Shown piece after piece: positions 1,735-53,335 of a stretch of 64,000 nucleotides of DNA. The notes beneath the pieces are model-generated. The model did not search any database and was not told where the DNA came from. It worked only from the letters and a program-made list of their open reading frames with translations. Within the stretch, counting starts at the first letter, position 1. The number at the start of each line of letters is the position of its first letter. The stretch comes from Alkalicoccus daliensis (GTDB lineage: Bacteria; Bacillota; Bacilli; Bacillales; Salisediminibacteriaceae). The position numbers and the translations under genes were made by a program. Location: positions 62,001-126,000 of the forward strand of contig NZ_FNIL01000002.1 in NCBI RefSeq assembly GCF_900103955.1, given 5' to 3'.

Positions 1735-2110
1735 CGGACGTTCTTTCCGTCAAAATTAGTCGAGAACAAGCCCTTGGGTAAGCCGCTCCGAAAGTGAAGC
1801 AGCAGTATTACTTCTTTTTAGCGGAACTTTTATTTTCAAGGTAGTAAAACAATAAAAGCTCTTCACTACAGAAAGAGGTGGATTGCTGAATGGAAGCAGA
1901 AAAATTTTTGAAATGATCTTCACTCCGGACGGGGGTTGTCTGCCACTCATTATTCCCCCGTTAAACGCGACCGCATTTTCAGATTTTGCTTAACCCGTAC
2001 GATTTGAAGATCAACCCAGGCAGATTAGCTGAAAGAATATCTTCCGGAACTCGTACATTCGAAGACAGAGAATAAAAGCGTATATTCTCTCAGAAAATTA
2101 CTGTTTTAAC
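1735..2110 (+). repeat. Intergenic modular repeat, copy with two modules
   Basis: The 690-base gap between the MaoC-like gene and phoP holds no gene. Positions 1735-1845 resemble, in inverted orientation, 4915-5020, sharing a stretch that reads AAATTAGTCG...AAGCC...GCTCCGAAAGTG and ending in an ACTTTTATTTTCAA block. That block also recurs at 32106-32150. Positions 2008-2100 match the right-hand module of the copies at 19030-19130 and 45125-45215 (AGATTAGCTGA, TTCCGGAA, TTCGAAGACA). Divergence between copies is considerable. Confidence 0.7.
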
Positions 2111-2119
2111 GCCTGAAAA

Positions 2120-2150
2120 GATCCTTTCCACTTTCTGGAGAGGATTTTTT
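2120..2150 (+). terminator. Rho-independent terminator
   Basis: GATCCTTTCC (2120-2129) pairs with GGAGAGGATT (2137-2146), followed by a T-run to 2150. It sits at the right border of the intergenic repeat and insulates phoP from upstream transcription. Confidence 0.8.
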
Positions 2151-2159
2151 AATGGAATC

Positions 2160-2187
2160 TTGTCATAAGAAAAAAGTATAGTAAGAT
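2160..2187 (+). promoter_or_regulatory. Probable sigma-A promoter of phoP-phoR
   Basis: TTGTCA (2160-2165), 16-base spacer, TAAGAT (2182-2187), between the terminator and the phoP start. No clear PhoP-box array (repeated TTAACA-like hexamers) was recognised nearby. Confidence 0.55.
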
Positions 2188-2260
2188 AAAAGGACGGGGA
2201 AAGTTCGTATATTTCAGCTTAAAGAAGCCGGGGGGCTTTGAGCAGACGGGGAGGATTAAC

Positions 2261-2977
2261 GTGGTGCAAAAACTACTAGTGGTAGATGACGAAGAATCAA
2301 TACTTACATTACTGCAGTTCAATCTGGAACAGGGAGGGTTTGAAGTAGACCTTGCCATGGATGGACGGGCTGCGCTTAACAAAGCAACAGAAGAAAAATT
2401 CGACCTGATTGTTCTGGATCTTATGCTGCCTGAATTAAATGGGCTGGAAGTCTGTAAAGAATTAAGGCAGAATAAAATAACTACACCTATTCTGATGCTG
2501 ACGGCAAGAGATGATGAATTCGACAAAGTGCTTGGACTGGAACTTGGAGCAGATGATTATTTAACAAAACCGTTCAGTCCCCGCGAAGTGGTAGCTAGAG
2601 TACGGGCAATTCTCCGGAGGTCACATTCCGCAGTGCCGCCAGTGGAAAAGCAGGAAGAAGATGCGAAGCTTACGATAGGAAAAGTAGAAATTTTTCCAGA
2701 TAATTATGAAGTGTTTTTGGAAGGAGAAGCTTTAGAGCTTACGCCTAAGGAATTCGAGCTTCTACTGTACTTAGTAAATAATAAAGGCAGAGTGCTGACA
2801 AGAGACCAGCTGCTTAATTCGGTCTGGAATTATGATTTTGTCGGAGATACGAGAATCGTAGATGTTCATATCAGCCATCTTCGGGAGAAAATAGAACCAA
2901 ATACAAAAAAACCTGTCTATATAAAAACAGTTCGTGGTCTTGGGTATAAGCTGGAGGATCCGGCAAAAGATGAATAG
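2261..2977 (+). CDS. phoP: Phosphate response regulator PhoP
   Basis: OmpR/PhoB-family response regulator. The receiver domain (about 1-120) shows the acidic pocket VVDDEES and the phosphoacceptor Asp53 in VLDLMLPE; the conserved Lys is in the LTKPF motif. The C-terminal winged-helix DNA-binding domain (about 140-235) ends with the typical VRGLGYKLE. It controls phosphate-starvation genes when phosphorylated by PhoR. The GTG at 2261 is preceded by GGGGAGG; a second in-frame GTG lies at 2264. The stop codon overlaps the phoR start by eight bases, so the two are translationally coupled. Assignment as phoP rather than another OmpR member rests on the position after mdh and before phoR/polA, as in B. 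subtilis. Confidence 0.93.
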   Translation: MVQKLLVVDDEESILTLLQFNLEQGGFEVDLAMDGRAALNKATEEKFDLIVLDLMLPELNGLEVCKELRQNKITTPILMLTARDDEFDKVLGLELGADDYLTKPFSPREVVARVRAILRRSHSAVPPVEKQEEDAKLTIGKVEIFPDNYEVFLEGEALELTPKEFELLLYLVNNKGRVLTRDQLLNSVWNYDFVGDTRIVDVHISHLREKIEPNTKKPVYIKTVRGLGYKLEDPAKDE

Positions 2978-4748
2978 CTACAGATTTCGCCTGATTGTTC
3001 CTTTATCACTGATTATTTTAATTGTGCTGTCGAGTCTCGGAGCACTGCTTGGACCTTTTATTCAGGAATTTTATCAGGAGCGGATGAATGACCGTGTACA
3101 GAAAGAGGCATCTATTGTCTCTTTTGCATTGGCACAGGTTGATTACACAGATGAAGAAATTCTGCAGGAGACGACTATGGAGCTCTCGCAGAGGCTGGAT
3201 GCAAGAATTACGATTATCGCAGCGGATGGGGAAGTACTTGCAGAAAGTGCTGTCGATCCGGCACAAATGGAAAATCATCTGGATCGTCCGGAAATTATTG
3301 GTGCGCAGGATGATACTAATCCTTTCGAAGTCCGTTACAGTGACACGATAAACAGAGAGCTTTTATTTTACGCAGAACCTCTCGTAATTGAAGAGGAAAA
3401 CATAGGGTATCTGCGGCTTGGCCTGGAAATGCGGGAACTGAACGAGGTGTATCAGAATATCTGGACCCTGCTGATCATTTCTTTTTTTATTGCATTTATT
3501 GTCATTCTTTTATTTATTACGAAAGTTACTAATCAGCTGATCAAACCAATAGAAGATGCGCGGCGTGTGGCAAATGAACTGGCAAGAGGAAATTTCAGTG
3601 CGAGAACCTATGAGGGGCTGCATATTGAAACTGGGGAATTAAACCGGTCTATTAATGTCCTTGCAGAAAATCTTGATCAAATTACAAAAACTTATGAAAA
3701 TCAGCAGGAGCGATTAGAAACACTCATTGAAAATATGGGGAGCGGCTTAATCCTTATCAATTCAAAAGGTGATATTACCTTAATGAACAGATCCTGTAAG
3801 GATATTTTTGAGGAAGATACGGACGAATGGAAAAACCAGCTCTATTACCACGCTATTCAGCAGAAAAAAGTCATCAAATTTATACAGGAATTATTTCTGA
3901 TTGAGAAGCCAATCAGAAAGCAGATGAAATGGTCTGCGGGTATTTATATTCGACATTTTGATGTACATGGTGCTCCTATAGTTGGGAATGATGGACAGTT
4001 AAAAGGTATGGTACTTGTATTTCATGACATTACAGAGCTGAAAAAGCTGGAACAGGCACGGAAAGATTTTGTAGCAAATGTTTCCCATGAGCTGAAAACA
4101 CCAGTTACCTCATTGAAAGGATTTACAGAAACACTGTTAGATGGGGCAATGCATGATGAAGCGCTCCGGGAAAAATTTCTCACAATTATTGCAAAAGAAT
4201 CTGTGCGCCTGGAGGAGCTTATCGGTGATCTGCTGGAGCTTTCCCGAATTGAAGGAGAGCATTTTGAATTAAATTGGGAAGAAGTGAATCTGCAGGAATT
4301 AACTTCGGAAGTCTCGCTGATGCTGTCTGAAAAAGCACGCGCCAAAAAAATGGAAATTCACACAAAGTCTGAAGGGGATGTGACTATCCCTGCGGATGCT
4401 TCCAGACTGAAGCAGGTAATGATTAACTTAATCAATAACGCTATTGTGTATTCCCCGGAAGGCGGAGAAATTTTCGTTCGTCTAAAAGGGCAGGAAGAAA
4501 ATGTTGTAATGGAAGTGACAGATACCGGAATTGGTATATCCAAAAAAGAGATTCCCCGTATTTTTGAAAGATTTTACCGGGTGGACAGGGCAAGGAGCAG
4601 GAATTCCGGGGGGACCGGACTGGGTCTTGCAATTGTAAAACACCTTGCAGAAGCCCATCATGCAAAGCTTTCAGTAGATTCAAAACCTGGGAGGGGCACT
4701 ACTTTCCGTATGGTATTTTTAAGAAAACCGTTTGGAGATGAAAAGTAA
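2970..4748 (+). CDS. phoR: Phosphate sensor histidine kinase PhoR
   Basis: Membrane sensor kinase, 592 residues. Order of parts: transmembrane helix near 9-28, extracytoplasmic domain, second helix near 165-188, HAMP (around 190-245), PAS (around 250-355), HisKA with the phosphorylated His in NVSHELKTP (residue 373), and an ATPase domain with the N box (LINNAIVYS), DTGIGI and GGTGLGLAI motifs. The start is the ATG at 2970, which overlaps the end of phoP and has GGAGG 12 bases upstream; the longer frame from 2934 is only read-through in phoP. Forms the PhoPR phosphate-starvation pair. Confidence 0.94.
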   Translation: MNSYRFRLIVPLSLIILIVLSSLGALLGPFIQEFYQERMNDRVQKEASIVSFALAQVDYTDEEILQETTMELSQRLDARITIIAADGEVLAESAVDPAQMENHLDRPEIIGAQDDTNPFEVRYSDTINRELLFYAEPLVIEEENIGYLRLGLEMRELNEVYQNIWTLLIISFFIAFIVILLFITKVTNQLIKPIEDARRVANELARGNFSARTYEGLHIETGELNRSINVLAENLDQITKTYENQQERLETLIENMGSGLILINSKGDITLMNRSCKDIFEEDTDEWKNQLYYHAIQQKKVIKFIQELFLIEKPIRKQMKWSAGIYIRHFDVHGAPIVGNDGQLKGMVLVFHDITELKKLEQARKDFVANVSHELKTPVTSLKGFTETLLDGAMHDEALREKFLTIIAKESVRLEELIGDLLELSRIEGEHFELNWEEVNLQELTSEVSLMLSEKARAKKMEIHTKSEGDVTIPADASRLKQVMINLINNAIVYSPEGGEIFVRLKGQEENVVMEVTDTGIGISKKEIPRIFERFYRVDRARSRNSGGTGLGLAIVKHLAEAHHAKLSVDSKPGRGTTFRMVFLRKPFGDEK

Positions 4749-4856
4749 ATTTACATTTTCTTAACGCTGTCTTTATAATTACTTATTATTGGAAGTTTAT
4801 AATAAAGGTGAACTAGATATCTGAAGGACACACATCCCCTCAGATACATCCCCTAT

Positions 4857-4899
4857 AAAAAGAGAGAAGGCCATCCCCCCTGAGCCTTCTCTCTTTTTT
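4857..4899. terminator. Strong rho-independent terminator after phoR
   Basis: AAAAAGAGAGAAGGC (4857-4871) pairs with GCCTTCTCTCTTTTTT (4884-4899). The A-run before and T-run after the stem would allow function on both strands. Confidence 0.9.
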
Positions 4900-4914
4900 G
4901 ATTTGGCTGTATTG

Positions 4915-5035
4915 AAAATAAAAGTTTTGTTTTAAAGGAATAATAACGCTGCTACACTTTCGGAGAGGCTTATCCATAGGCTTGGTAGCGACTAATTTGG
5001 GAGGAAAGAAAGTTCGGCAATACAAATTTTCAAAC
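4915..5035 (-). repeat. Intergenic modular repeat, inverted partial copy
   Basis: Read on the minus strand this segment matches 1735-1845, with shared blocks TTTCTTTCC, AAATTAGTCG, AAGCCTCTCCGAAAGTG and ACTTTTATTTTCAATA. The 475-base gap between phoR and polA otherwise holds only the phoR terminator and a weak polA upstream region. Confidence 0.7.
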
Positions 5036-5223
5036 AATGCGACTGAGGGTCCTTTTCTTCGCTTCCCGTGGAGGAATCTTTCAGCTGTCAATCACTTTCA
5101 CCTGTAAACACTGCACATTAATAGAGCCGTTGTTTTACACCTGCAGAGAGAAGACATGCCATCTGAATTGTTTCATGATAAAATAGCAGAACAGAAAAGA
5201 ATCTATGAATCGGGGTGTTCAGT

Positions 5224-7854: not shown

Positions 7855-7874
7855 GAGTAAGGAGGAAAAAAGAA

Positions 7875-9310: not shown

Positions 9311-9328
9311 ACAGGACGGCGTTTTTTT
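9300..9328 (+). terminator. Terminator after coaE
   Basis: CGTCGTC (9300-9306) pairs with GACGGCG (9315-9321) with one G-T pair, followed by seven T. The stem includes the end of the coaE coding sequence. Confidence 0.8.
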
Positions 9329-9439
9329 GTGGTCTTTTCACAGCAGCAAATATCTCTATAGAAAAAAGGGCTCCTCACCACGAATTGTAGTTAACGAATG
9401 AATTTATTTATATTCACTAAAATGGAGAAGAAATGTTAC

Positions 9440-9690
9440 GGGAAGAAAAGTACTGACAGACTGATCTTTCTGCGAAGAAACTAGGTTTTCACCGGAGTGT
9501 CCGGCGTGTACTCCGGGATTTAAGCGAAGTCTGATGCAGACAGGGAAATAGCTGAAGAGGAGCCCCACGGCAAGCTTCCGCCGGTAAGTGCAGGAGAAAC
9601 CCCTGCCATAAAGATAAATAATAATACGCTGAAGGAAATCATTTTCGCTTCGGTTTTCTTTCTTTATTATTGTCATCTACATGTTATGGT
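9440..9690 (-). repeat. Intergenic modular repeat, inverted copy
   Basis: Read on the minus strand it shows the left module of the long copies: GCGGAAGCTTGCCGTGGGG, TCTTCAGCTATTT, then a block like AGACTKCGCTTAAATCCC, in the same order as the copy at 44780-44890. The left end is more diverged. No gene is seen in 9331-9811 apart from the gapB control region. Confidence 0.75.
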
Positions 9691-10984: not shown

Positions 10985-11062
10985 TGCAGGTGAGAGAGTT
11001 CCCTTCGAAAACAAAGGACAGAAGTGTCTACTTATTAAGAAAAAGTGCTTTTTCAACAGCCT
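10985..11062 (+). repeat. Intergenic modular repeat, right-end fragment
   Basis: GCAGGTGAGAGAGTTCCCTTCGAA and the final AAAAAGTGCTTTTTCAACAGCC match the right end of the copy at 45125-45226. The stretch 10841-10984 shows no gene. Confidence 0.65.
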
Positions 11063-11065
11063 TAC

Positions 11066-11094
11066 AAACTGCCTCTTGAGGGGGCAGTTTTTTT
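11066..11094 (+). terminator. Terminator between gapB and speD
   Basis: AAACTGCC (11066-11073) pairs with GGCAGTTT (11083-11090), followed by a T-run. It lies directly after the repeat fragment and some 225 bases after gapB. Confidence 0.8.
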
Positions 11095-16344: not shown

Positions 16345-16618
16345 TAGAGCTATACTGTTGCAAAGAGATGTTAACAGCACGGAAGAGGACATGAGTATAA
16401 ACTAGCGGATCCGCCAGAGAGGGAAGCAGCCTGCTGAGAGCTTCCTGGATTTCCTTTTATACTTACCACCTTTGAGCTTTGTTTCTGAACAGATGAGTAG
16501 GAAGCAACGGATCCGCCGTTACCGGAAGAATGAAGCGGGCACCCAGGTGTCCGGAACAAGGGTGGAACCACGGTTACACACTCGTCCCTTACGATTGTTA
16601 AGGGACGAGTGTTTTTTT
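16345..16618 (+). ncRNA. T-box riboswitch of thrS (threonine)
   Basis: The leader carries the conserved T-box AGGGTGGAACCACGG (16559-16573), which pairs with the uncharged tRNA acceptor end through its antiterminator. The specifier region reads CTTACCACC (16462-16470), giving ACC threonine codons. The upstream GCGGATCCGCC hairpin and AGAGAGGGAAG...CTTCC elements fit T-box stem parts. It ends with the terminator 16578-16618. Low charged tRNA-Thr should allow read-through into thrS. Confidence 0.93.
16578..16618 (+). terminator. T-box terminator of thrS
   Basis: ACACTCGTCCCTTA (16578-16591) pairs with TAAGGGACGAGTGT (16599-16612), followed by a T-run. It competes with the antiterminator formed by the T-box sequence. 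Confidence 0.92.
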
Positions 16619-18582: not shown

Positions 18583-18639
18583 CTCTTTTCTTCATGCTCT
18601 AACGGCGCAGCTTGTGGACATAGTAAGTAGTGTGTATAG

Positions 18640-19140
18640 GTGTGATTTTCTCTGTATAGGTTCTCCGTCGCTTCCCGGCGGAAGCTTGGGTGGGGCTTGT
18701 CTTCAGCTATTTGAAATGCCTGCTGGATAGAACAAAATAAGAAGAGCATGGGTCCGCGCAGCCACCTCCATCTCGGAAAAAGCATACGAGATGGAGGCAA
18801 ATCCCTGGCTGGCTTCCCTCATGCTGTGAGAAAATGTCCCAAAAAATCGTTTGGACATTCTCTCACAGACTGCGTTTAAATCCCACAGGCGTCCCCGCCG
18901 GGCGCTATGGAGAAAAGTTATTTCCGAAGAAAAAGTGTTCGTATCTCTGCGGTTTCGTATAAAACCATTCTCTCCCTTAATTATGCTGCAGTCGCAGACG
19001 GCCGACTCCGAGAGGGATTAGAACGATTCGAAGATCCATCTGCCAACGGCAGATTAGCTGAGAGAGTTCCCTCCGGAAAGCGTGCCTTCGGAGACAAAAG
19101 CATAGAACCGTATACTTATACATAAAAATTACTCTTTCAA
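18640..19140 (+). repeat. Intergenic modular repeat, long copy 1
   Basis: Left module TATAGGTTCTCC...GGCGGAAGCTT...TCTTCAGCTATTT; insert AGCATG...CATGCT at 18745-18825 with internal CCATCTC/GAGATGG pairing; a second hairpin, TGTGAGA...TCTCACA, at 18824-18869; a middle module GCGCTATGGAGAAAAGTTATTTCCGAAGAA; and the right module AGATTAGCTGAGAGAGTTCCCTCCGGAAAGCG...CGGAGACAAAAGCATA. The same modules recur at 36885-37150, 44731-45226 and 52981-53335. It fills the gap between thrS and the infC promoter. Confidence 0.9.
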
Positions 19141-19184: not shown

Positions 19185-19316
19185 GTGAACATTATACGGA
19201 AACCAAAGCAAGAAGAAGCGCCCGCTTCTCACCTGTATCGTCAGCATACGTTCAGGTTACTGAATTAATACATCGATGTGATGAAGTGTGGGCGATTTTT
19301 CTCCCGCGCTTTTTTT
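19185..19316 (+). ncRNA. L20-type leader with attenuator terminator
   Basis: The leader before infC has AGAAGCGCCCGCTTCTCACC and, about 70 bases on, a terminator GTGTGGG (19286-19292)/CCCGCGC (19303-19309) with a T-run. In Bacillus this leader binds ribosomal protein L20 and controls the operon by transcription termination. Assignment is by position and layout; the L20-binding fold was not modelled. Confidence 0.82.
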
Positions 19317-19384
19317 ATGCTGTTTAAAATAAACAGCAGCAGAACATCTTGCTTTGCTCCGCAAAATCATGGAGGTGGCTCAAT

Positions 19385-26035: not shown

Positions 26036-26284
26036 GAATGAAAGACGTTGAAAGAGACAAGTAGGCGAATTATTTTTTTGACAGGGAGACTGTGCCATTG
26101 ATTGAAAGCACAGTTCAAAAAAACCGCTGAATTCACTCTGGAGTTGGTGCTGTAATGGTACCCCGGCAAAAGGCCGTTATCCTTTCTTGACCAAATGAAG
26201 CGAATGGAGGAAAGATCTCCATTAATAAGGGTGGTACCGCGAAGTCTTTCGTCCCTTGATAAGAGGGAAGAAAGGCTTTTTTTC
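26036..26284 (+). ncRNA. T-box riboswitch of pheST (phenylalanine)
   Basis: T-box AAGGGTGGTACCGCG at 26227-26241; specifier region GCTGAATTCACT with the Phe codon TTC at 26132-26134; 5' segment with the typical GAAAGAGAC-AAGTA start of stem I. Terminator at 26244-26283. Uncharged tRNA-Phe should prevent termination. Confidence 0.93.
26244..26283 (+). terminator. T-box terminator of pheST
   Basis: GTCTTTCGTCCCT pairs with AGGGAAGAAAGGC, followed by a run of seven or more T. Confidence 0.9.
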
Positions 26285-32084: not shown

Positions 32085-32155
32085 GCAAGCGCAGAAAAAG
32101 GAGCCGCAGTATTACTTCTTTTTAGCGGAACTTTTATTTTCAATGTAGCCTTATT
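32085..32155 (+). repeat. Intergenic modular repeat, partial copy
   Basis: GCAGTATTACTTCTTTTTAGCGGAACTTTTATTTTCAA at 32106-32144 is almost identical to 1799-1837. The rest of the 400-base gap before polX (31848-32084) shows no gene and only weak resemblance to other copies. Confidence 0.8.
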
Positions 32156-36816: not shown

Positions 36817-36849
36817 ATCGGAAGCATAAATACTGGTACAACGCAGAAA

Positions 36850-36879
36850 GGCATAAAGCTTCCGGCTTTATGCCTTTCT
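36850..36879 (+). terminator. Terminator after the yshE group
   Basis: GGCATAAAGC (36850-36859) pairs with GCTTTATGCC (36865-36874), tail TTTCT. Confidence 0.82.
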
Positions 36880-36884
36880 ACGTG

Positions 36885-37150
36885 TTTGTAAAGCAAGAAA
36901 TTTTTTATATTTATGATTTGCTGTGTATGGGTTCTCCTCCGCTTTCCGGCGGAAGCTTGCCGTGGGCTGGCCTTCAGCTATTTGCAATGCCTGCCGGATA
37001 GAACAAAATAAGAAGAGCATGGGTCCGCGCAGCCACATCCATCTCGGAAAAAGCATACGAGATGGATGCAAAACCCTGGCTGGCTTCCCTCATGCTTGGA
37101 TCCCGCTGTCACCGCCGGGCGCTATGGAGAAAAGTTATTTCCGAAGAAGA
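36885..37150 (+). repeat. Intergenic modular repeat, long copy 2
   Basis: Starts GTGTTTGTAAAGCAAGAAATTTT, then the left module CTCCGCTTTCCGGCGGAAGC, TTCAGCTATTTGCAATGCC, the insert AGCATG...CATGCT (37016-37096, nearly identical to 18745-18825), and the middle module GGGCGCTATGGAGAAAAG with TTATTTCCGAAGAA. The right module is missing. It follows directly after a terminator. Confidence 0.9.
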
Positions 37151-37441: not shown

Positions 37442-39127
37442 ATGACAACACTGATGCAAAAGCCGTGGCTGGAATCTTATCCACAAGAAATACCGGAAAC
37501 GATTGATTACGATAAACAGACACTCCAAAGTTATCTTAAACGTGCCGCAGAACAGTTTCCTGATAAAGGTGCATTTCATTTCATGGGGAAAGAAATGACA
37601 TACAGCGCTGTTTATGAGGAAGCTTTGAAGCTGGCGAATCAGCTGAGAAAATACGGTATCACACAGGGAGACAGGGTTGCTGTTATGCTTGCAAATACAC
37701 CGCAGGCAGTAATCAGTTATTACGGAGCACTTCTCGCAGGAGCAGTGGTAGTGCAGACAAATCCTCTATATGTAGAGAGGGAAATTGAGCATCAAATGAA
37801 TGATTCCGGTGCCAAGATCATGATTTGTCTGGATCTCGTGTATCCGCGTGTAGCGAAAGTAAGAGAGAAAACTTCACTGACGCATATTATTGTTACAGGA
37901 ATTAAAGACTATCTGCCTTTTCCAAAAAATAAAATTTATCCATTCATTCAAAAGAAGAATACAGGGATTAAAGTAGACCTGACTTATTCAGATACTCTTT
38001 TATCTTTCAGCAAAGTGATCGAAAGCGGAGCAGCTAAAGAAATCGAGCTTGATATTGACCCGGTGAACGACCTTGCGCTCCTCCAGTACACAGGGGGGAC
38101 CACAGGGCCGGCAAAAGGAGTAATGTTAACGCATTATAATCTTGTGGTCAACACGCAGCAGTGTGAAGAATGGATGTATAAACTGGAACCTGGAAAAGAA
38201 GTTGTAATGGCAGCACTTCCATTTTTCCATGTGTACGGCATGACCACGGTGATGAATCTCGCGGTCCGGATGGCGTTTAAAATGATTATTATGCCAAAAT
38301 TCGATCCGAAGGGAATACTGAAGGCAATTGAAAAACATAAAGCGACTCTTTATCCTGGAGCGCCTACTATGTACATCGGGCTGCTGAATCATCCTGATAT
38401 TAAAAAGCATGATCTATCTTCGATTAAAGCTTGTATCAGCGGTTCTGCACCGCTGCCTCTGGAAGTCCAGACGGGATTTGAGGATACTACACATGGGCGG
38501 CTGGTAGAAGGCTACGGTTTAACAGAAACTTCCCCAGTTGCTATTGCAAATCTGCTCTGGGGAAAACGAAAGCCGGGATCGGTTGGAATGCCCTGGCCGG
38601 ATACAGATGTGAAAATACTTTCTGCTGAAACCGGGGAAGATGCAGCACCAAACGAAGTTGGAGAAATTATGATTAAGGGCCCTCAGGTAATGAAAGGCTA
38701 CTGGAAGCAGCCCGAAGCAACACAGGCAAGCTTCCGCGGAGAGTGGTTTTTATCGGGGGACATGGGTTATATGGATGAAGAAGGTTTCTTTTATATCGTT
38801 GACAGAAAAAAAGACATGATAATTGCAGGCGGATTTAATATTTATCCGCGGGAAGTGGAAGAAGTATTATATGAGCATGAAGCTGTTCAGGAAGTCTGTG
38901 TAATCGGAGTGCCTGATCCTTACCGTGGGGAGACGGTAAAAGCATTTGTTGTGCTGAAAGAAGGAGCATCGGCAACTGAGGATCAGCTGGATGAGCACTG
39001 CAGGAATGAACTTGCTTCCTTCAAGGTGCCAAAATACTACGAATTCCGTGAGGAGCTGCCGAAAACAATGGTCGGTAAAATACTGCGGCGGGTTCTGGTA
39101 GAAGAAGAAAAAGAGAAAAGAAAATAA
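37442..39127 (+). CDS. lcfA: Long-chain acyl-CoA synthetase (first of tandem pair)
   Basis: Activates fatty acids with ATP and CoA for beta-oxidation. The 561-residue AMP-forming enzyme has P-loop-like YTGGTTGPAKG (near 217), YGLTETSP (near 360), GDMGYMDEEGFFYIVDRKKD (near 440) and the catalytic Lys in PKTMVGKILRR close to the C-terminus. GGGAGG is upstream. Controlled by FadR box 1 and perhaps by CcpA. A terminator separates it from the second copy, so each is its own transcription unit. B. subtilis has one lcfA at this place. Confidence 0.93.
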   Translation: MTTLMQKPWLESYPQEIPETIDYDKQTLQSYLKRAAEQFPDKGAFHFMGKEMTYSAVYEEALKLANQLRKYGITQGDRVAVMLANTPQAVISYYGALLAGAVVVQTNPLYVEREIEHQMNDSGAKIMICLDLVYPRVAKVREKTSLTHIIVTGIKDYLPFPKNKIYPFIQKKNTGIKVDLTYSDTLLSFSKVIESGAAKEIELDIDPVNDLALLQYTGGTTGPAKGVMLTHYNLVVNTQQCEEWMYKLEPGKEVVMAALPFFHVYGMTTVMNLAVRMAFKMIIMPKFDPKGILKAIEKHKATLYPGAPTMYIGLLNHPDIKKHDLSSIKACISGSAPLPLEVQTGFEDTTHGRLVEGYGLTETSPVAIANLLWGKRKPGSVGMPWPDTDVKILSAETGEDAAPNEVGEIMIKGPQVMKGYWKQPEATQASFRGEWFLSGDMGYMDEEGFFYIVDRKKDMIIAGGFNIYPREVEEVLYEHEAVQEVCVIGVPDPYRGETVKAFVVLKEGASATEDQLDEHCRNELASFKVPKYYEFREELPKTMVGKILRRVLVEEEKEKRK

Positions 39128-39519: not shown

Positions 39520-41226
39520 ATGCCATCAATATCATCTGCAAGACCATGGTTAAAACAGTATCCGGAAGAAATTCCCGAATCAATACAATATGAAAAGAAA
39601 ACACTGCCCGAATATTTGAAAGAAGGGGCGGAGGAAGAACCTAATAAAGAATTGCTTCATTTTATGGGGAAAACTATGACATTTGGGGAAGTTTATAAAG
39701 CTGCCTGCGCATTCGCTGCAGGTCTGCAGAAACTGGGAGTACATAAGGGTGACCGGGTTGCGATCATGCTTGCGAATACGCCGCAGTCAGTAATCAGCTA
39801 TTATGGCACACTGCTTGCGGGAGGAGTGGTTGTACAGACGAATCCGCTGTATGTAGAGCGGGAGCTGGAGCACCAGCTGATAGATTCTGAAGCAAAAGTA
39901 ATGATCTGCCTGGACCTTGTGTATCCAAAAGTACAGGCAGTGCAGAAAAAATCGAAGCTTGAACATGTAGTGGTGACAAAAATTAAAGACTATCTTCCTT
40001 TCGTAAAAGGACTTATTTATCCTTTTATCCAGAAGAAAAATACTGGCATCGATCCGGATATTTCTTATGGCAATACGACACATAATTTTCAGTCGTTTCT
40101 GCGTAATGCTCCCAAAATGCCAACCCCGGTGGAGGTAGCACCGGATAAAGATTTAGCATTGCTGCAATACACTGGCGGCACGACCGGGGCCGCAAAAGGC
40201 GTGATGCTGACGCATCTGAATCTGGTGGCCAATACCACCCAGTGCAGCCAATGGATGTATAACATGAAACAGGGAGAAGAAGTAATTCTCTGTGCACTGC
40301 CATTCTTTCACGTTTACGGCATGACAGTCGGTATGAATTATTCAGTAATGGAACGGTCGAAAATGGTTATTCTGCCGAAATTCGATACCACGCAGACTTT
40401 AAAAGCCATTCAATCTCAGAAGGTAACAATTTTTCCTGGTGCTCCAACGATGTATGTTGGCCTGATCCATGATGAGAATGTGAATAAATATGATCTGTCT
40501 TCCATTAAAGTATGTATCAGCGGTTCTGCGCCCCTGCCATTAGAAGTGCAGCAGCGATTTGAACAATTGACGGGTGGAAAGCTTTCTGAAGGCTTTGGGT
40601 TAACAGAAGCTTCACCGGTAACGCATTTTAATCTCATGTGGGGGAAAAGACCTCCGGGCAGTATCGGCCTGCCATGGCCCGATACAGATGTAGTCGTATG
40701 GAATGCAGAAGCGGAAGAAGAAGCTGATCCGGGAGAAGTGGGAGAGTTATTAATACGCGGCCCTCAGGTGATGCAGGGCTACTGGAAACGTCCGGAAGAA
40801 ACTGCTTCTGCGCTTCAGAATGGCTGGCTGTACACAGGAGATATGGGCTATATGGACGAAGAAGGCTATTTTTACATTGTGGATCGAAAAAAGGATATGA
40901 TTATTGCCGGAGGATTTAATATTTATCCACGGGAAATTGAAGAAGTTCTCTACGAGCATGAAGCTGTAAAAGAAGCAGTCGCAATGGGCATTCCCGACCC
41001 TTACCGGGGAGAAACCGTAAAAGCCTATATTGTCGTAAAAGAAGGGCAGAAAGTAACTGAGAAAGAATTAGATCAATACTGCCGTTCACAGCTGGCTTCC
41101 TACAAAATTCCGAGAAAGTATGAGTTCCGTGAAGAGCTGCCAAAAACAATGGTGGGGAAAGTTCTCAGACGGGCGCTCCAGGAAGAAGAAAAGGAAAAAG
41201 AAAAGGAACGCCAAAAATCTGGCTAA
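39520..41226 (+). CDS. Long-chain acyl-CoA synthetase (second of tandem pair)
   Basis: A 568-residue AMP-forming synthetase clearly paralogous to the preceding gene: the same N-terminal PWLKQYPEEIPE start, YTGGTTGAAKG (near 217), GFGLTEASP, GDMGYMDEEGYFYIVDRKKD and PKTMVGKVLRR. The ends differ and the tail is extended and charged (EEEKEKEKERQKSG). CAGGAGGA precedes the ATG. It lies just before fadR but has no FadR box that I could find directly upstream. Probably arose by tandem duplication and may differ in chain-length preference. Confidence 0.92.
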   Translation: MPSISSARPWLKQYPEEIPESIQYEKKTLPEYLKEGAEEEPNKELLHFMGKTMTFGEVYKAACAFAAGLQKLGVHKGDRVAIMLANTPQSVISYYGTLLAGGVVVQTNPLYVERELEHQLIDSEAKVMICLDLVYPKVQAVQKKSKLEHVVVTKIKDYLPFVKGLIYPFIQKKNTGIDPDISYGNTTHNFQSFLRNAPKMPTPVEVAPDKDLALLQYTGGTTGAAKGVMLTHLNLVANTTQCSQWMYNMKQGEEVILCALPFFHVYGMTVGMNYSVMERSKMVILPKFDTTQTLKAIQSQKVTIFPGAPTMYVGLIHDENVNKYDLSSIKVCISGSAPLPLEVQQRFEQLTGGKLSEGFGLTEASPVTHFNLMWGKRPPGSIGLPWPDTDVVVWNAEAEEEADPGEVGELLIRGPQVMQGYWKRPEETASALQNGWLYTGDMGYMDEEGYFYIVDRKKDMIIAGGFNIYPREIEEVLYEHEAVKEAVAMGIPDPYRGETVKAYIVVKEGQKVTEKELDQYCRSQLASYKIPRKYEFREELPKTMVGKVLRRALQEEEKEKEKERQKSG

Positions 41227-44681: not shown

Positions 44682-44700
44682 CACAGGGGGTTCAATATAA

Positions 44701-44727
44701 ACACGGCGGGCTTTCCCGCCGTGTTTT
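44701..44727 (+). terminator. Terminator after etfA (left hairpin of a flanking pair)
   Basis: ACACGGCGGG (44701-44710) pairs with CCCGCCGTGT (44715-44724), then TTT. A near-copy lies at 45228-45255 on the other side of the repeat. Confidence 0.88.
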
Positions 44728-44730
44728 CAG

Positions 44731-45226
44731 GGTGTTTATAAAGTAAGAAATTTTGTATGTTTATTATTTGCTGTGTATAGGTTTTCCTCCGCTTTCCGGC
44801 GGAAGCTTGCCGTGGGGATAGTCTTCAGCTATTTGCAATGCCTGCCGGCATTACAAAGGATCTTCAGACTGCGCTTAAATCCCACAGGCGTCCCCACCGG
44901 GCGCTATGGAGAAAAGTTATTTCCGAAGAAAAAGTGTTCGTAGCTCTCCGGTTTCGTATAAAAGCGATTGCCTCCCTTAATTATGCTGCAGTCGCAGTAG
45001 AGTCGACTCCTGGAGGATGAAGAACGAATCTTATATCTTCCCAGGCGTTCTTACTCGGAAGATATAGTAAGCATGTGCGAAACCAGCCAGTGATTTGGCT
45101 GCGTGAAGCCATGCTCCTCTTTTAAGAAGGCAGGTTCGCTGAGAGAGTTCCCTCCGGAAAGCGACACTTCGGAGACAAAAGCATAAAATCGTATACTCAT
45201 ACAAAAAGTACTTTTTCTACAGCCTG
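44731..45226 (+). repeat. Intergenic modular repeat, long copy 3
   Basis: The most complete copy: GTGTTTATAAAGTAAGAAATTTTG start, GGCGGAAGCTTGCCGTGGGG, TCTTCAGCTATTTGCAATGCCT, GACTGCGCTTAAATCCCACA with GGCGTCCCC, GGGCGCTATGGAGAAAAG, TGCTGCAGTCGCAG, two nested palindromes (45031-45069 with ATATCTTCC/GGAAGATAT; 45070-45115 with AGCATG/CATGCT), then GCTGAGAGAGTTCCCTCCGG and the AAAAAGTACTTTTTCTACAGCC end. The insert at 37016-37096 in copy 2 is absent here at the equivalent position. The 970-base gap to trxA has no gene. Confidence 0.92.
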
Positions 45227-45227
45227 T

Positions 45228-45258
45228 ACACACGGCGGAAAATCCCGCCGTGTGTTTG
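45228..45258 (+). terminator. Second GCCG hairpin, right flank of repeat copy 3
   Basis: ACACACGGCGG (45228-45238) pairs with CCGCCGTGTGT (45245-45255), followed by TTGTT. Stem sequence nearly duplicates the etfA terminator. Confidence 0.8.
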
Positions 45259-45545: not shown

Positions 45546-45652
45546 AAACTCAGCGCTGAAAAAAAGCTTTGAGCAGGGTGTTTTCAACACTGCGGCGTTC
45601 AAGTTATACTGTATTTAACAGCTGAGGCTGATATATGAAGGAGGAATTTTAA

Positions 45653-45967: not shown

Positions 45968-46070
45968 TTTACTGAGGATCTGTATCTGTTTTTAGGGACT
46001 TTACAATTGTTTCGAAAAAGCAGTATTTATCCAAAGCCAATAAGAAAATACACCGGAACTCCGGTAATTG

Positions 46071-46108
46071 GAGAGGCTGTCCCCTGCTTTGACGGGCAGC
46101 CTCTTTCT
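46071..46108 (+). terminator. Terminator after trxA
   Basis: GAGGCTGTCCC (46073-46083) pairs with GGGCAGCCTC (46094-46103), tail TTTCT. Confidence 0.75.
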
Positions 46109-46133
46109 GTACTTTCACGCAGGAGGAATTGTG

Positions 46134-47915: not shown

Positions 47916-48073
47916 ACGATTAAGCGATTTGTCAATAAACCTTCCCTTTGTTACGCTTTTATAGGTGTTGTTTTTACCAGAAAAAAAGAAATATTCAGGT
48001 TTTCTTTTGCGCGTAAGCAGGTAATTAATAATTGAAGCGCAGCTGTGTAAATATGTGAAGGAGGGCGTACAAA

Positions 48074-49324: not shown

Positions 49325-49330
49325 TAAAAC

Positions 49331-49371
49331 GCCCGTCTTCTGCTGTAAAAGCAGGAAACGGGCTTTTTTTT
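49331..49371 (+). terminator. Terminator after lysC
   Basis: GCCCGTcttCTGCT pairs with AGCAGgaaACGGGC (49331-49363), followed by eight T. Confidence 0.88.
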
Positions 49372-49494
49372 GCTATGTTGAGGATTGGTCTGGGGAGGCA
49401 GTATAAGTCGCTGATGAAAGGAAATATTCCTCCTCTGAGGCACGTGCTTAAGATTCTTTCCAAGGACTTAAACTGCTGAAAACAAGAGATATAG

Positions 49495-49572
49495 GAGCTG
49501 GCAGTCTGCCGAAGGAAAACAGAGGCGGCCCCATACATAAATATACAAACTTCCATACTTCATAAATAATTT
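49495..49572 (-). repeat. Intergenic modular repeat, left-end remnant
   Basis: Read on the minus strand: TTTATGAAGTATGGAAGTTTGTATATTTATGTATGGGG, resembling the first 50 bases of the copies at 44731 and 53335 (TTTATAAAGTTAGGAATTTTGTATATTTATGATTTGC). The sequence beyond it toward 49390 is more diverged. Confidence 0.55.
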
Positions 49573-49575
49573 GAA

Positions 49576-49607
49576 AAGCACTGCTTCAGGAATGAGAAGC
49601 AGTGCTT
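49576..49607 (-). terminator. Terminator downstream of the MMPL transporter
   Basis: Minus strand: AAGCACTGCTTC pairs with GAAGCAGTGCTT, followed by TT-rich sequence (49576-49607). Confidence 0.8.
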
Positions 49608-49624
49608 GTTATTACTGAGTTTCT

Positions 49625-52444
49625 TTATTTTCTTCCAGGCGCTTTGAATGGCAGCCAGTTATTTTCCCCAAACAGGCGAACCATTAGAGGGATGAATAAT
49701 GGCAGCATTACAAACGCATAGAGCAGCAGTCCAGTAAGCACCAGCGTACCTATTTGCACGAGTGAAAGTACGCCGGATGGCATCATTGCACCGAACGTTC
49801 CCGCTAGTATAATCGCTGCGGAAAGAATGACTGTCCCTATTTTCGTCATGGCACCGAGCAAGGCATCATGCACAGAGTGGTCTTTCATATTTTCTGCAAA
49901 ACGGCCCATTAAGAAGATAGAGTAATCGACCCCGAGAGCCATCAGCATGACAAATCCAAAGAATGGTACGGCCCAGCTGATGCCGGGATATCCCAGGATT
50001 GTCACAAAGATAAGTTCAGTGACAGCCATTGAAATTATATATGTTCCGATAAGAGAAGCTAATATATAAACGGGCATAATCAATGAACGGAGCATAACAA
50101 CAAGTACGAGAAAAATACCACTCAGCATTATTGCCGCTGTACGATAAAAATCCTGATCAGATATTTCTGCAAGGTCTGCATTTGTGGCAGGAAGACCTCC
50201 CAGGGAATATCTAAACTCATCCGGCCATTCAGACAATGCACGAGCAATTTGTTCATCTATTTCGTTTACCGTATCCATCGCAGCATTGCTGTAGGGATCA
50301 ATTGCCAGTACTACGTCAAGCGTCGTGACAAGTTCATTTGGTGTAGTGAATGCAGAAGTAAGCTCATCCATCTCATCATCCTCGAATGCTTCCGCAGGTA
50401 CATAGAAGCCTTCGAGCGGATGCGCAGGCTGGGAGGCAATTTCATCTAGCAGTTCATTAACCTCTTCCATTCCTTCAAGAATTTCTTCTGTTCCTTCAGC
50501 GATTTCATCTACTGCATCAGCAATTTCAACAAATGCTTCGCCAATATCAGAGAAACCTTCAGCGAGATCTGTCTGGCCATCGCTGATTTCTGTCTGTCCT
50601 GCAGCGGCTTCAGAAATGCCGTTTTGAATTTCTTCCTGCCCCTCTGCAAGTTCATTAGTACCGCCGGCCGTTTCCTGGAGTCCTGTTTCCAGTTCATTTA
50701 AGCCGCCGCTTAATTCTTCCAATGTTCCGGCAGTCTGGGGATCAAGTGCTGGATTTTGAGCAATTTCAGCAATAGCACCCTGAATACCTGCCATTTCCTC
50801 TGCGATATTTCCCTGCGCAGCAGCAAGTTCCCTTGCCCCCGCTGCTGATTCTTCCAACCCATCGGCAGACTCGTTCAGACCTTCCTGGAGTTCTGCAGAG
50901 CCTTCCGCAAGATCTGCGGCACCATCTGCGGCTTCATCTGTCGCGTCCTGTTCTTCCCGCAGATTTTCACTGAGTTCATTTAAGCCGTCTATAATTTCTT
51001 CCAGGCCTTCTTCCATCTCTTCCGTGCCATCCGCAGCTTCTCCCATTAAATAAGGGATGCTGAACTCTTCAACCGTTTCTCCATCCGGGCGGGAAAAACT
51101 TCTCACTTCTTCAACTTCTTCAATCATCGATACCTGTTGAGAAACTTGTTCGATGACCGGCAGCATTTCAGATTGATTCCACGGTTCTTCCGACTCCATG
51201 ACTACCTTGACCGGGAAAGAGTGCCCGACACCAAAACGGTCGGAAACAATTTCTATCGCTTCCACAGATTCAAAATCGCTTCCTATTTCATCAAGTGAGT
51301 GGAAAGAAAGCCGCTGTTCATAAAATAAAAATGAAGGGACCAGGAGGGCAATCAGGATCAGAGAGGTCCATCCTGGACGGACGAAAGAAAATTTTCCTAA
51401 CCCTTTCCAGATTCTGCTGTCCGTATCTTCCAGCGCACGTTTCGAAGGCCAGAAAATTTTCTCTCCAAGAAGCAGCATTGCTACAGGGACCCAGACGACT
51501 AAAGCTAAAACGAGCAGTACAATTCCCACTGCCACACCTGCGGCAGACTGGTACAGATCAAAATCTGCCAGGCCAATTGCAGCAAAGCCGATAAATCCTG
51601 TTAATGCACTTGAAAATACAGTAGGTCCCACAGCGCGATAGGTTTCTTTTACAGCCGTGACACGATTATCCTGTTTCGCAAGCTCTTCTTTAAATCGATT
51701 TAAAAGAAGAATACAGTAATCAGTCCCTATACCGAATAAAATTGCTACGATAAAAATCTGCGTAAAGTTGGATACAGGGAAGTCCCAGCCGTCTATCATA
51801 AAAGAAACGACCGGAATGGTAATAAAATAAGCAGCTCCCACAGTAACTAATGGTACTAATGGAGCTACCACAGAACGGAATACAAACAACAGGATAGTGA
51901 TTACAAATACAACTGTAATAATTTCCGTGGTTGCAAGGCCTTCTTCCGAACTGATAATTACGTCATCTTCTATAATTGCTTCCCCGCTGACGAAGGTTTC
52001 CACCTCTTCGTTTAATGCAGCAGCTTCTACATCAGGCCGGACAGTCGGGACATCGTTCAGTGTCATATCAAGTGTAATGACTGCCATCAAGGTAGTTTCA
52101 TCATCACTGATCAGCGCACTGCTTTCTTCGTTTTCAAAGGGGGAGGTAATATCCACTACCGGGAATCCCTGAATTTCTTCCGGGAAATCATTCAGCGTAT
52201 CTTCTACGGAGTTAAGCTGATCCTCGGTAAAGCCGTCATCTTCCACATAAACCAGCAGGATTTCTTCTCCGGAAGCTCCTTCATTCTCGGCAAGAATATC
52301 TGCTGTGACAGCAGTCTGGTAATTATCAGGTATATCAAATTGTCCTCTTTCCCTGACTAGCTGATCGAGATCCGGGCTCGCGAGAAACAGCCAGATTCCA
52401 AGGCCGATCCAGAGAAAAGGAAATATATAAATCAGGCGGCGCAT
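49625..52444 (-). CDS. MMPL/RND family membrane transporter (YdfJ-like)
   Basis: A 939-residue transporter with two homologous halves: first transmembrane helix near 5-24, a helix group near 175-365, and a second group near 745-930. Characteristic GIGTDYCILLLNRFKEEL (near 238) and ALGVDYSIFLMGRFAENM (second half) motifs mark the proton relay. Between the halves (about 470-690) is a long Glu/Ala/Leu-rich stretch of repeating short units (variants of LAEGSAEL, EELSGGLNELETGL), probably an extended coiled coil outside the membrane. Start overlaps the MarR gene by one base (TAATG), so the regulator and transporter form one operon. Likely exports lipids or toxic compounds; substrate unknown. Confidence 0.9.
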   Translation of the reverse strand: MRRLIYIFPFLWIGLGIWLFLASPDLDQLVRERGQFDIPDNYQTAVTADILAENEGASGEEILLVYVEDDGFTEDQLNSVEDTLNDFPEEIQGFPVVDITSPFENEESSALISDDETTLMAVITLDMTLNDVPTVRPDVEAAALNEEVETFVSGEAIIEDDVIISSEEGLATTEIITVVFVITILLFVFRSVVAPLVPLVTVGAAYFITIPVVSFMIDGWDFPVSNFTQIFIVAILFGIGTDYCILLLNRFKEELAKQDNRVTAVKETYRAVGPTVFSSALTGFIGFAAIGLADFDLYQSAAGVAVGIVLLVLALVVWVPVAMLLLGEKIFWPSKRALEDTDSRIWKGLGKFSFVRPGWTSLILIALLVPSFLFYEQRLSFHSLDEIGSDFESVEAIEIVSDRFGVGHSFPVKVVMESEEPWNQSEMLPVIEQVSQQVSMIEEVEEVRSFSRPDGETVEEFSIPYLMGEAADGTEEMEEGLEEIIDGLNELSENLREEQDATDEAADGAADLAEGSAELQEGLNESADGLEESAAGARELAAAQGNIAEEMAGIQGAIAEIAQNPALDPQTAGTLEELSGGLNELETGLQETAGGTNELAEGQEEIQNGISEAAAGQTEISDGQTDLAEGFSDIGEAFVEIADAVDEIAEGTEEILEGMEEVNELLDEIASQPAHPLEGFYVPAEAFEDDEMDELTSAFTTPNELVTTLDVVLAIDPYSNAAMDTVNEIDEQIARALSEWPDEFRYSLGGLPATNADLAEISDQDFYRTAAIMLSGIFLVLVVMLRSLIMPVYILASLIGTYIISMAVTELIFVTILGYPGISWAVPFFGFVMLMALGVDYSIFLMGRFAENMKDHSVHDALLGAMTKIGTVILSAAIILAGTFGAMMPSGVLSLVQIGTLVLTGLLLYAFVMLPLFIPLMVRLFGENNWLPFKAPGRK

Positions 52445-52887
52445 TAAAATTCCTCCTCGTGCAGCATTTGATTCAGTTTATGATAAACACTTAAAAAAAC
52501 TTCCAGTTCTTCTTCATCCAGTCTGGAAAAGTAGGGTTCAATAAAATCAGTCATTGCTTTTTTTCCTTCTTCCAGAGCAGCTTCTCCAGCAGCAGTAAGT
52601 TCGATTAAAATACTTCGTCTGTCTGCATGGCCGGAAGTGCGCTGCACAAATCCTCTTTCTTCCAAACGCGCCACTTTACTTGTCACGGCACTTTTATGTA
52701 CATCCGTTTCCTGCGCTACTCTCTTCGCAGAAATGGCACCTTCTTTTTTCAGCACTCTTAATATTCCGAACTGTTCCAGTGAAATAGGCATTGCCTGATC
52801 TACGAGCACCCGGTCTATTTTTTTGGTGGCAAACAAGTATACATTTGCATACTGATCGATCAGTTCCTGTAATCTTTCTTTATCCAT
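52444..52887 (-). CDS. MarR family transcriptional regulator
   Basis: A 147-residue winged-helix regulator. The recognition helix region AQETDVHKSAVTSKVARLEERGFVQR and the wing SGHADRRSILIELT are typical of MarR. Start ATG at 52887 has AGGAG eight bases upstream; GTG at 52896 is a less likely alternative. It precedes and overlaps the MMPL transporter gene, and a perfect inverted repeat overlies its promoter, so autorepression with release by an exported compound is likely. Confidence 0.9.
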   Translation of the reverse strand: MDKERLQELIDQYANVYLFATKKIDRVLVDQAMPISLEQFGILRVLKKEGAISAKRVAQETDVHKSAVTSKVARLEERGFVQRTSGHADRRSILIELTAAGEAALEEGKKAMTDFIEPYFSRLDEEELEVFLSVYHKLNQMLHEEEF

Positions 52888-52919
52888 TCTAATCACTCCT
52901 GAAAAATATCAACTGCAAA

Positions 52920-52950
52920 TTAGTTTACCCCATAAACTAAAAATGTTCAA
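52920..52950 (-). promoter_or_regulatory. MarR-type operator over the marR-mmpL promoter
   Basis: TTAGTTTA (52920-52927), five bases, TAAACTAA (52933-52940): a perfect 8+8 inverted repeat. On the minus strand TTGAAC (52950-52945), 17-base spacer and TAAACT (52927-52922) form a promoter overlapped by the operator. Confidence 0.8.
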
Positions 52951-52980
52951 AATAAACACCTGAAAAATAAATTTTCAGGT

Positions 52981-53335
52981 GTCAAGTCTGTTAAAAAATT
53001 TTTCTATATTAAGTATGCGCTTTTATGCTTTGCCTTCGAAGGTACGCTTTCCGGAGGGAACTCTCTCAGCTAACCTGCCTCTGGCAGGTGGATCTTCGAA
53101 TCGTTCTAAATCCTCCCGGAGTCGACCTTCTGCGACTGCAGCTGAGAAAAAAGAGGACTAGATTTTATATAGTGTCTCCAGTACAAGCGCAGTCTTCAGC
53201 TATTTCTTCTGCCCCAGGGGACAGTAGAAATAGCTGAAGACGAGCAGGCAAGGTTCCGCAAGAGAGCGGAGGAAAACCCATACATAGCAAATCATAAATA
53301 TACAAAATTCCTAACTTTATAAACACTCTGAACAC
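52981..53335 (-). repeat. Intergenic modular repeat, long copy 4 (inverted)
   Basis: On the minus strand it starts GTGTTTATAAAGTTAGGAATTTTG and ends with the right module GTTAGCTGAGAGAGTTCCCTCCGG...AAAAGC. It has TGCAGTCGCAG and the CGATTCGAAGATCCACCTGCC block shared with copy 1. At 53192-53241 the motif GTCTTCAGCTATTTC is present in inverted duplicate, forming a 50-base hairpin. Both ends abut similar hairpins (52956-52982 and 53335-53357). No gene in 52951-53471. Confidence 0.9.

What the first reader, a model, noticed from the sequence alone, without database searches (positions are those of the whole stretch)
1735..53335. Family of dispersed, modular intergenic repeats in both orientations
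At least ten copies or remnants (1735-2110, 4915-5035, 9440-9690, 10985-11062, 18640-19140, 32085-32155, 36885-37150, 44731-45226, 49495-49572, 52981-53335) share ordered modules: a left block with GCGGAAGCTTGCCGTGGGG and TCTTCAGCTATTT, a middle block GGGCGCTATGGAGAAAAG, and a right block GCTGAGAGAGTTCCCTCCGG ending AAAAAGTACTTTTTCTACAGCC. They lie only between genes, often next to terminators, and code for nothing. Density of about one per 6 kb in core DNA is high. They may be non-autonomous mobile elements or structured RNA units; similar repeats are hinted at in other Bacillaceae but I know of no described function.
Basis: seen in the sequence. Interest (0 to 1): 0.75.

Follow-up and report, generated by a model that had tools for sequence, protein, structure and literature searches.

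The report
Terminator-doubling mobile DNA repeats
These repeats are small mobile elements without a gene of their own that appear to insert into the stop signals of transcription and copy the whole stop signal to both of their sides; they also carry a folded module seen in many related bacteria.

Summary
The repeats are real: 66 genome places match the right block (reversed-pattern control 0), and 31 copies have both ends. They are best read as non-autonomous relatives (MITEs) of an IS1182-family insertion sequence. 20 of 31 lie between two direct copies of a whole terminator-like hairpin (27-39 bp, 8-16 pairs), against 2 of 930 swapped flank pairs. Two sister species differ at one site by exactly one element plus one hairpin (476-bp gap; 524 of 530 other positions identical). 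IS1182 elements of other Firmicutes have the same type of end (CAG..TGT) and the same duplication in 45 of 58 loci examined. Inside the repeats lie one or two ~100-nt covarying hairpin cores, facing each other. Such cores also occur in some of these IS, in 77 of 299 genomes sampled from the class, and resemble part of Rfam tsr24. No IS1182 gene was found in this genome. The finding mixes at least two families: 1716-1860, 4893-5035 and 32089-32148 belong to a younger one showing no terminator duplication. Whole-hairpin duplication was proposed in a published model (PMC5678879); the MITEs and the core did not turn up in ten literature searches.

The parts
44698..44727 (+). left copy of the duplicated terminator-like hairpin (target-site duplication)
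   Evidence: aligned with 45227-45256, 24 of 30 identical, 12 pairs
44728..45226 (+). full MITE copy (499 bp) with ends CAGGGTGTTTATAAAGTA and TTTTTCTACAGCCTG
   Evidence: one of 31 copies with both ends
44798..44902 (+). structured core (left, forward)
   Evidence: covariance model R1, 82.1 bits; this copy (as L009) is itself in the model's alignment
45128..45179 (-). right block, read as remnant of the second, inverted core (interrupted by an inserted hairpin module)
   Evidence: repeat pair with 53029-53080, which overlaps an inverted R1 match; inference for this copy
45227..45256 (+). right copy of the duplicated terminator-like hairpin
53331..53365 (-). terminator-like hairpin at the left end of the second full copy
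   Evidence: 30 of 35 aligned positions identical with the other side
52984..53330 (-). full MITE copy, minus strand (right end uncertain by a few bases)
53164..53260 (-). left core of that copy
   Evidence: R1, 26.3 bits
53039..53133 (+). right, inverted core of that copy
   Evidence: R1, 50 bits
52955..52983 (-). duplicated terminator-like hairpin at the right end
18638..19140 (+). older copy with diverged left end and an inserted hairpin module; cores at 18677-18773 (+, 18.7 bits) and 18994-19088 (-, 47.9 bits)
   Evidence: not among the 31 full copies, no duplication seen by eye
36847..36877 (+). terminator-like hairpin directly before a truncated copy
   Evidence: read by eye
36882..37148 (+). 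copy truncated at its right end
   Evidence: R1 20.3 bits at 36948-37120
9499..9601 (-). remnant with core
   Evidence: R1 26.5 bits
   Evidence: R1, 34.6 bits; sequence
49536..49607 (-). left-end remnant next to a terminator-like hairpin (49576-49607)
   Evidence: 83% to 53293-53332; hairpin
11003..11069 (+). weak remnant of the right end
   Evidence: 75% identity
2018..2115 (+). diverged right block of the main family, beside second-family sequence
   Evidence: 74% identity
1716..1860 (+). second, younger repeat family
   Evidence: 42 matches in the genome; boundaries by eye
4893..5035 (-). second family, diverged copy
32089..32148 (+). second family, partial copy

Best explanation
The main family is a set of non-autonomous transposable elements (329-666 bp in 30 of 31 full copies) mobilised in trans by an IS1182-family transposase. 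The enzyme chooses its target by shape: the stem-loop of an intrinsic terminator. [quoted passage not shown] repair then copies the whole stem-loop to both sides. Because a terminator remains on both sides, the gene upstream keeps its stop signal and the insert is insulated, which would explain why copies persist between genes. The element reads as the ends of such an IS, with one or two facing copies of a structured core, without the transposase gene. Shown here: ends, hairpin duplication in MITEs and in IS1182 elements, a filled/empty pair, gene context, shared core, its covariation and orientation. Inferred: the foot-of-hairpin joining chemistry (published model), mobilisation in trans, the source of the transposase (none found in this genome), harmlessness, and that the hairpins terminate transcription.
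For: Ends: 31 copies with sharp ends, consensus CAGAGTGTTTATAAAGTAAGAAAT and, from the other side, CAGGCTGTTGAAAAAGTATTTTTT. Duplication: 20 of 31 copies have a direct repeat (score at least 34, threshold set after seeing the scores) with 8-16 base pairs; 2 of 930 swapped flank pairs reach that score; 6 of the 20 are identical on both sides; each of the 20 exceeds all of 200 shuffles. Context: 18 convergent, 13 co-directional, 0 divergent gene pairs. Filled/empty pair: G007 (L287) and G001 (L293) align with one 476-column gap block in G001 (element plus one hairpin) and 524 of 530 other columns identical, G001 having the hairpin once. Transporter-gene site: G002 and G003 have one hairpin and gaps of 70 and 76 nt with no end-like sequence; the own genome has 573 nt with the hairpin twice; G006 has 789 nt with a different hairpin twice, round an element whose end is CAGGCTGTTGAGAAAGTC. 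IS1182 elements: 45 of 58 loci have CAG-type ends abutted by a direct repeat of 16-42 bp (median 23), palindromic (median 0.85 of positions paired, shuffled mean 0.27). The transposase of L133 scores 500 bits against the NF033551 cut-off of 270. Core shared by MITEs and IS.
Against: No IS1182 transposase in the own genome. Of 20 IS1182 matches listed in the genus only five loci were fetched, three of them partial, and none of the five had the MITE ends. 11 of 31 copies show no duplication, and 13 of 58 IS loci none by my rule (one, L205, shows it). In 4 of the 45 the repeat as cut by my rule was not centred on the palindrome (fraction below 0.4). The MITE left end differs from IS ends at several bases. 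At the transporter site G001 and G007 have one terminator but carry end-like sequence (PWM 16.4 and 10.4), so they may be decayed insertions, not empty sites. In the G001/G007 pair the empty state could be a later loss by recombination between the two hairpins, because G005 is filled at the same site. No baseline of gene orientation was computed, and no transcription data were available.
Confidence: 0.86

Rival explanations
1. The repeats are structured RNA elements kept by the host for a function (mRNA stability or 3'-end control); mobility is secondary or ancient.
For: The core has covarying base pairs (13 pairs with changes on both sides; covariation 0.366 against 0.054-0.112 when slid) and resembles positions 130-203 of Rfam tsr24, an S. 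aureus small RNA (28.7 bits, below the gathering score of 50).
Against: Target duplications, the filled/empty pair and an independent insert at one orthologous terminator point to mobility. Copies lie in either orientation. The core also sits inside transposase-bearing IS. Conservation of positions across species was looked at for two sites only.
Confidence: 0.1
2. The MITEs are moved by an unrelated transposase that happens to prefer hairpins.
For: No IS1182 gene in the genome; the left end diverges from IS1182 ends.
Against: Same CAG..TGT ends, same position of the duplication and same core as IS1182 elements; the G006 element has the exact 18-nt IS end CAGGCTGTTGAGAAAGTC.
Confidence: 0.08
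3. The doubled terminators arose by recombination or assembly error and not by transposition.
For: Repeats can recombine, and the genome is in 28 contigs.
Against: The hairpin differs from locus to locus but matches across each insert; swapped flanks rarely match (2 of 930). The same is seen in records titled as complete sequences of other species (L167, L229).
Confidence: 0.02

Closest known systems
IS1272 / TnSha1 (IS1182 family, staphylococci). PMC5678879: abstract, part 1 of 2 of the Discussion and passages seen; PMC4923244: 12 of 13 passages seen
   Same: IS1182 family; targets stem-loops, often terminators, without primary-sequence specificity.
   Different: IS1272/TnSha1 are reported to delete or replace the stem-loop and to leave no duplication; here the whole stem-loop is duplicated. 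Duplication is pathway b of the model in PMC5678879, offered there as a possibility.
Short structured repeats such as bcr1 of the Bacillus cereus group (named in passages of PMC2267715) and RUP and BOX of pneumococcus (start of the abstract of PMC3049150 in the listing)
   Same: Short, non-coding, interspersed, intergenic; BOX is also modular (recalled).
   Different: Other sequences; I recall no terminator duplication for them. Not compared at sequence level.
Rfam RF02577 tsr24 (S. aureus small RNA)
   Same: Positions 130-203 align to the reverse complement of the core with matching stems.
   Different: Score below the gathering threshold; Rfam types it as an sRNA gene. No paper on it was found in the one search made.
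Bhal-1 stem-loop family of Bacillus halodurans (PMC2267715, passages seen)
   Same: Repeated intergenic stem-loop family in a related genus.
   Different: 74 bp, 36 copies in that paper; not compared at sequence level here.

Membership tests
IS1182-family-derived MITE | terminal inverted repeats shared with an autonomous element | tested here: met
   CAG..TGT ends shared in type with IS1182-group elements; identical 18-nt end in the G006 element; left end of own copies diverges
IS1182-family-derived MITE | same target choice and duplication as the autonomous element | tested here: met
   20 of 31 MITEs, 45 of 58 IS loci
IS1182-family-derived MITE | no transposase gene inside | tested here: met
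   31 copies of 329-1128 bp; only two overlap any ORF above 150 aa (178 and 182 aa, not identified); no NF033551 match in the genome
IS1182-family-derived MITE | partner transposase in the same genome | tested here: not met
   0 matches in own genome at E 0.001
IS1182-family-derived MITE | movement in trans | not testable with these tools
   needs an assay
IS1272-type stem-loop replacement | stem-loop removed on insertion, no duplication | tested here: not met
   hairpin duplicated in 20 of 31 and 45 of 58; the copies without duplication were not tested for replacement
Rfam tsr24 (RF02577) | score at or above gathering threshold (50 bits) | tested here: not met
   28.7 bits for L222, 28 for L164; not listed for the window copy at E 5
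Structured RNA motif | covariation beyond sequence conservation | tested here: met
   but 'further pair types' did not exceed shuffles (274 of 500), and the sequences were picked by a pattern that fixes the GGG and CCC columns
Structured RNA motif | transcription and RNA function | not testable with these tools
   no expression data

The most novel reading that the evidence does not exclude
The ~100-nt core is an independent structured module that serves IS1182-type elements in cis. It may be a folded DNA or RNA that the transposase or host machinery reads, or a shield against read-through, and it has spread widely by sitting, always facing inwards, at one or both ends of these elements and their MITEs. 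A small RNA catalogued in S. aureus (tsr24) would be one of its descendants. Together with terminator doubling this would be a mobile-element strategy built on hairpins: hairpin target, hairpin duplicate, hairpin core.
Probability: 0.15. Interest if true: 0.85.

Novelty: new variant of a known kind. Interest (0 to 1): 0.62.

Why it matters
It gives many natural examples of an insertion mode that a published model offered as one possible outcome (whole stem-loop duplication), and it suggests why a bacterial repeat can reach high copy number between genes: the target's stop signal is kept on both sides. It also ties intergenic repeats found in many genomes of the class, and possibly one catalogued S. 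aureus sRNA family, to a transposon group, so such repeats should be tested for mobility before they are read as regulatory RNAs.

Tried and rejected
A structured-RNA-only reading was dropped as the main one after the flank duplications appeared. IS1182 in the own genome: none. Rfam at the gathering score: only two T-box and one L20 leader. A strict de novo detector (CAG..TGT / CTG plus duplicated palindrome) found 66 places in the 1.17 Mb fetched by then and 0 in the reversed sequences, but none in the window and 3 among L242-L271, because MITE ends vary; not used for counts. That the core is needed for hairpin duplication: weakened, since 29 of the 45 IS loci with duplication show no R1 match inside the IS at E 0.01; 29 is an upper bound, since leaders of L224, L226, L228, L230 and L240 look core-like by eye, but those of L166, L177, L195 and L206 are only 108-129 nt long. 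Second family: 25 copies tested, none with a doubled terminator above its shuffles, looking at most about 840 nt upstream, so it is not claimed for this mechanism. The L040 site could not be compared in other species because the downstream gene did not match. On re-checking I dropped two of three 'empty sites' at the transporter gene (G001, G007: end-like remnants) and added G003, first left out because its locus was unoriented. Literature: ten searches (one search returned nothing); passages of PMC9208149, PMC1590033 and PMC2864571 were also seen without anything on this family. No paper on IS1182 MITEs or this core in Bacillaceae appeared in the listings. The library lacks most subscription papers, ISfinder was not available, and I recall that ISfinder lists 0-60 bp repeats for IS1182, so curators may know the IS-level duplication.

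Full report
1. The observation. The blocks named in the finding are present. The right-block pattern GCTGAGAGAGTTCCCTCC has 66 places in the 3.78-Mb genome with up to 3 mismatches and 0 for the reversed pattern. The 516-bp copy at 44720-45235 has 63 matching stretches, with 40 of 129 candidates scored. I merged the listed places into 72 sites, fetched the 66 outside the window, and found 31 copies with both ends, two of them in the window (L060 and L093 were left out because they overlap L061 and L092). The other sites are partial or did not meet the end rule and are not in the counts below.

2. Ends. The left end reads CAGAGTGTTTATAAAGTAAGAAAT and the right end, from its own side, CAGGCTGTTGAAAAAGTATTTTTT (consensus of 31). 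They are imperfect inverted repeats. The 516-nt strand folds better than all of 100 shuffles (z -4.99).

3. The flanks are the key. In 20 of 31 copies the same hairpin stands directly left and right of the element. The direct repeats are 27-39 bp long, form 8-16 pairs, and 6 of 20 are identical on both sides. Each of the 20 beats all of 200 shuffles. If left and right flanks of different copies are paired, 2 of 930 reach the score (34, set after seeing the scores; highest 38). 11 of 31 show no such duplication. The hairpins look like intrinsic terminators; one search lists those at 45228-45255 and 52983-52955 among 14 terminator-like sites (8.0 expected in shuffles). 18 copies lie between convergent genes, 13 between co-directional, 0 between divergent genes; genes were taken from ORFs of 80 aa or more, and no genome baseline was computed.

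4. Empty and filled sites. A joined probe of eight gene ends gave loci in the seven other species of the genus. (a) L061 site: G007 and G001 have the same flanking DNA (524 of 530 aligned positions identical) and differ by 476 columns: G007 has an element between two copies of a hairpin, G001 has the hairpin once. G005 also has an element there between two hairpin copies. So the unit gained or lost is the element plus one hairpin; a later precise loss in G001 by recombination between the hairpins is not excluded. (b) L088 site, after a gene that resembles a glycine-betaine binding protein (recalled, not searched): the own genome has 573 nt between the neighbours with the hairpin twice; G002 and G003 have 70 and 76 nt, one terminator and no end-like sequence. 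G006 has 789 nt with a different hairpin, twice, round an element that begins CAGGCTGTTGAGAAAGTC and ends TTTATCAACACTCTG: the same terminator was hit independently. G001 and G007 have one terminator but also an end-like stretch (scores 16.4 and 10.4), so they may be decayed insertions. G005 and G004 have one terminator followed by core-bearing DNA (R1 42.6 and 26 bits; 35.4 bits).

5. The partner. No IS1182 transposase (NF033551) is found in the own genome at E 0.001. In the 35 genomes of the family that were held, 31 have a match, 17 over the cut-off. L133, L134 and L136 have CAG-type ends and doubled hairpins. Five genus loci were examined (L137, L141, L153, L157, L159); none had the MITE ends. 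A scan of named genomes with an alignment of four such transposases kept 80 of 217 relatives. I examined 58; 22 were dropped beforehand for short flanks, partial matches or runs of N. 45 of 58 have ends directly abutted by a direct repeat of 16-42 bp, median 23, palindromic (median 0.85 of positions paired, shuffled mean 0.27; 4 of 45 below 0.4). 13 did not meet the rule; one of them (L205) shows the repeat. Most are Bacilli by their titles; L204 is a Tissierellia record. Matching coordinates suggest that G015, of the same family as the window's genome, is Evansella halocellulosilytica; inference.

6. Mechanism. PMC5678879 (abstract, part 1 of 2 of the Discussion, passages) proposes outcomes for IS1182-type insertion at a cruciform. 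IS1272 removes the stem-loop (pathway a); joining at the 5' feet would duplicate it (pathway b). PMC4923244 (passages) reports partial deletion and no duplication for TnSha1. The elements here look like pathway b. The target's hairpin stays on both sides, which I infer makes the insertion mild.

7. The core. Within the element lies a ~100-nt module, GGCGGACGCTTTCCGTGGG ... CTTCAGC ... GATCTTCAGACTGC ... CCCACAGGAGTCGCCGCC. It is found in MITEs, in IS leaders and alone. On 20 sequences the structure has 91.4% standard pairs, 13 pairs with changes on both sides (shuffles 9.8, 5 of 500 reach 13), 75 such cells (shuffled mean 27.2; slid versions 7-31), and a covariation score of 0.366 (slid 0.054-0.112). 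'Further pair types' did not exceed shuffles (274 of 500), the structure derives from the same alignment, and the pattern used to collect most sequences fixes the GGG and CCC columns. Model R1 finds 8 places in the window at E up to 1. Nine of 33 MITE loci searched (L055, L077, L081, L090, L092, L095, L104, L285, L287) and two window copies show a forward core at the left and an inverted one at the right; the others show one, or none, above threshold. Of 29 R1 matches in 62 IS loci, 25 lie in the IS region: 17 upstream of the transposase gene, all forward, and 8 downstream, all inverted; L132/L184 and L134/L163 are the same insertions seen in two collections. 29 of the 45 IS loci with duplication have no R1 match inside, so the core seems not to be needed for it. 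In 299 genomes sampled from the class, 77 have matches at E 0.001, in 27 of 119 genera; stricter filters, at most 12 candidates scored per genome. Rfam tsr24 aligns to it with 28.7 bits, below its threshold of 50.

8. The second family. 1716-1860, 4893-5035 and 32089-32148 belong to another repeat: 42 matches in the genome with 40 of 175 candidates scored, several at 97-99% identity, ends near CAGACTTTAACAGAGACACTC and TTTTATTTTCAAGGTAGC by eye. Copies L310, L311, L315 and L321 overlap R1 matches of 33-41 bits; L314 only 13.9. 25 copies were tested and none shows a doubled terminator above its shuffles, so its mode of movement is open.

9. Verdict. The main family is best read as a MITE family of IS1182 type with whole-terminator duplication: a new variant of a known kind. 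The duplication outcome itself was proposed in print; the MITEs and the shared core did not appear in ten library searches.

Noticed in passing
window 1716-1860, 4893-5035, 32089-32148; L306-L331: A second, younger repeat family (42 matches among the scored candidates, up to 99% identity) with a diverged core and no terminator duplication; in L308 a copy sits inside another element that by eye has its own doubled hairpin.
   Followed up: partly
   Followed up: partly
L162-L166, L169, L177 (5' ends): The IS end itself forms a terminator-like hairpin, e.g. CAGGCTGTTGAGAAAGTCTTCTCAACAGCCTG followed by a T run in L164, so the IS would be insulated from inside as well.
   Followed up: no
L258 and L243, L246, L249, L252 (Evansella): Cores also sit in other repeat frames; in L258 near TGAATGAATTTCATAA, which resembles the inverted ends of another IS1182 subgroup in L148-L150 and L152.
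   Followed up: no
L222 2323-2419, L164 2331-2432: Rfam tsr24 (S. aureus sRNA) matches the core below threshold but with matching stems.
   Followed up: partly
L287 (G007), L285 (G005), L293 (G001): At one site two species are filled and a third, very close to one of them, is empty: either a recent gain or a precise loss by recombination between the doubled terminators.
   Followed up: partly
window 37442-39127 and 39520-41226: Tandem paralogous ORFs (repeat families D1, D3, D8, 70-77% alike).
   Followed up: no
window 16371-16592, 26039-26259, 19204-19321: Two T-box leaders and an L20 leader; the repeat at 18638-19140 lies just upstream of the L20 leader.
   Followed up: no
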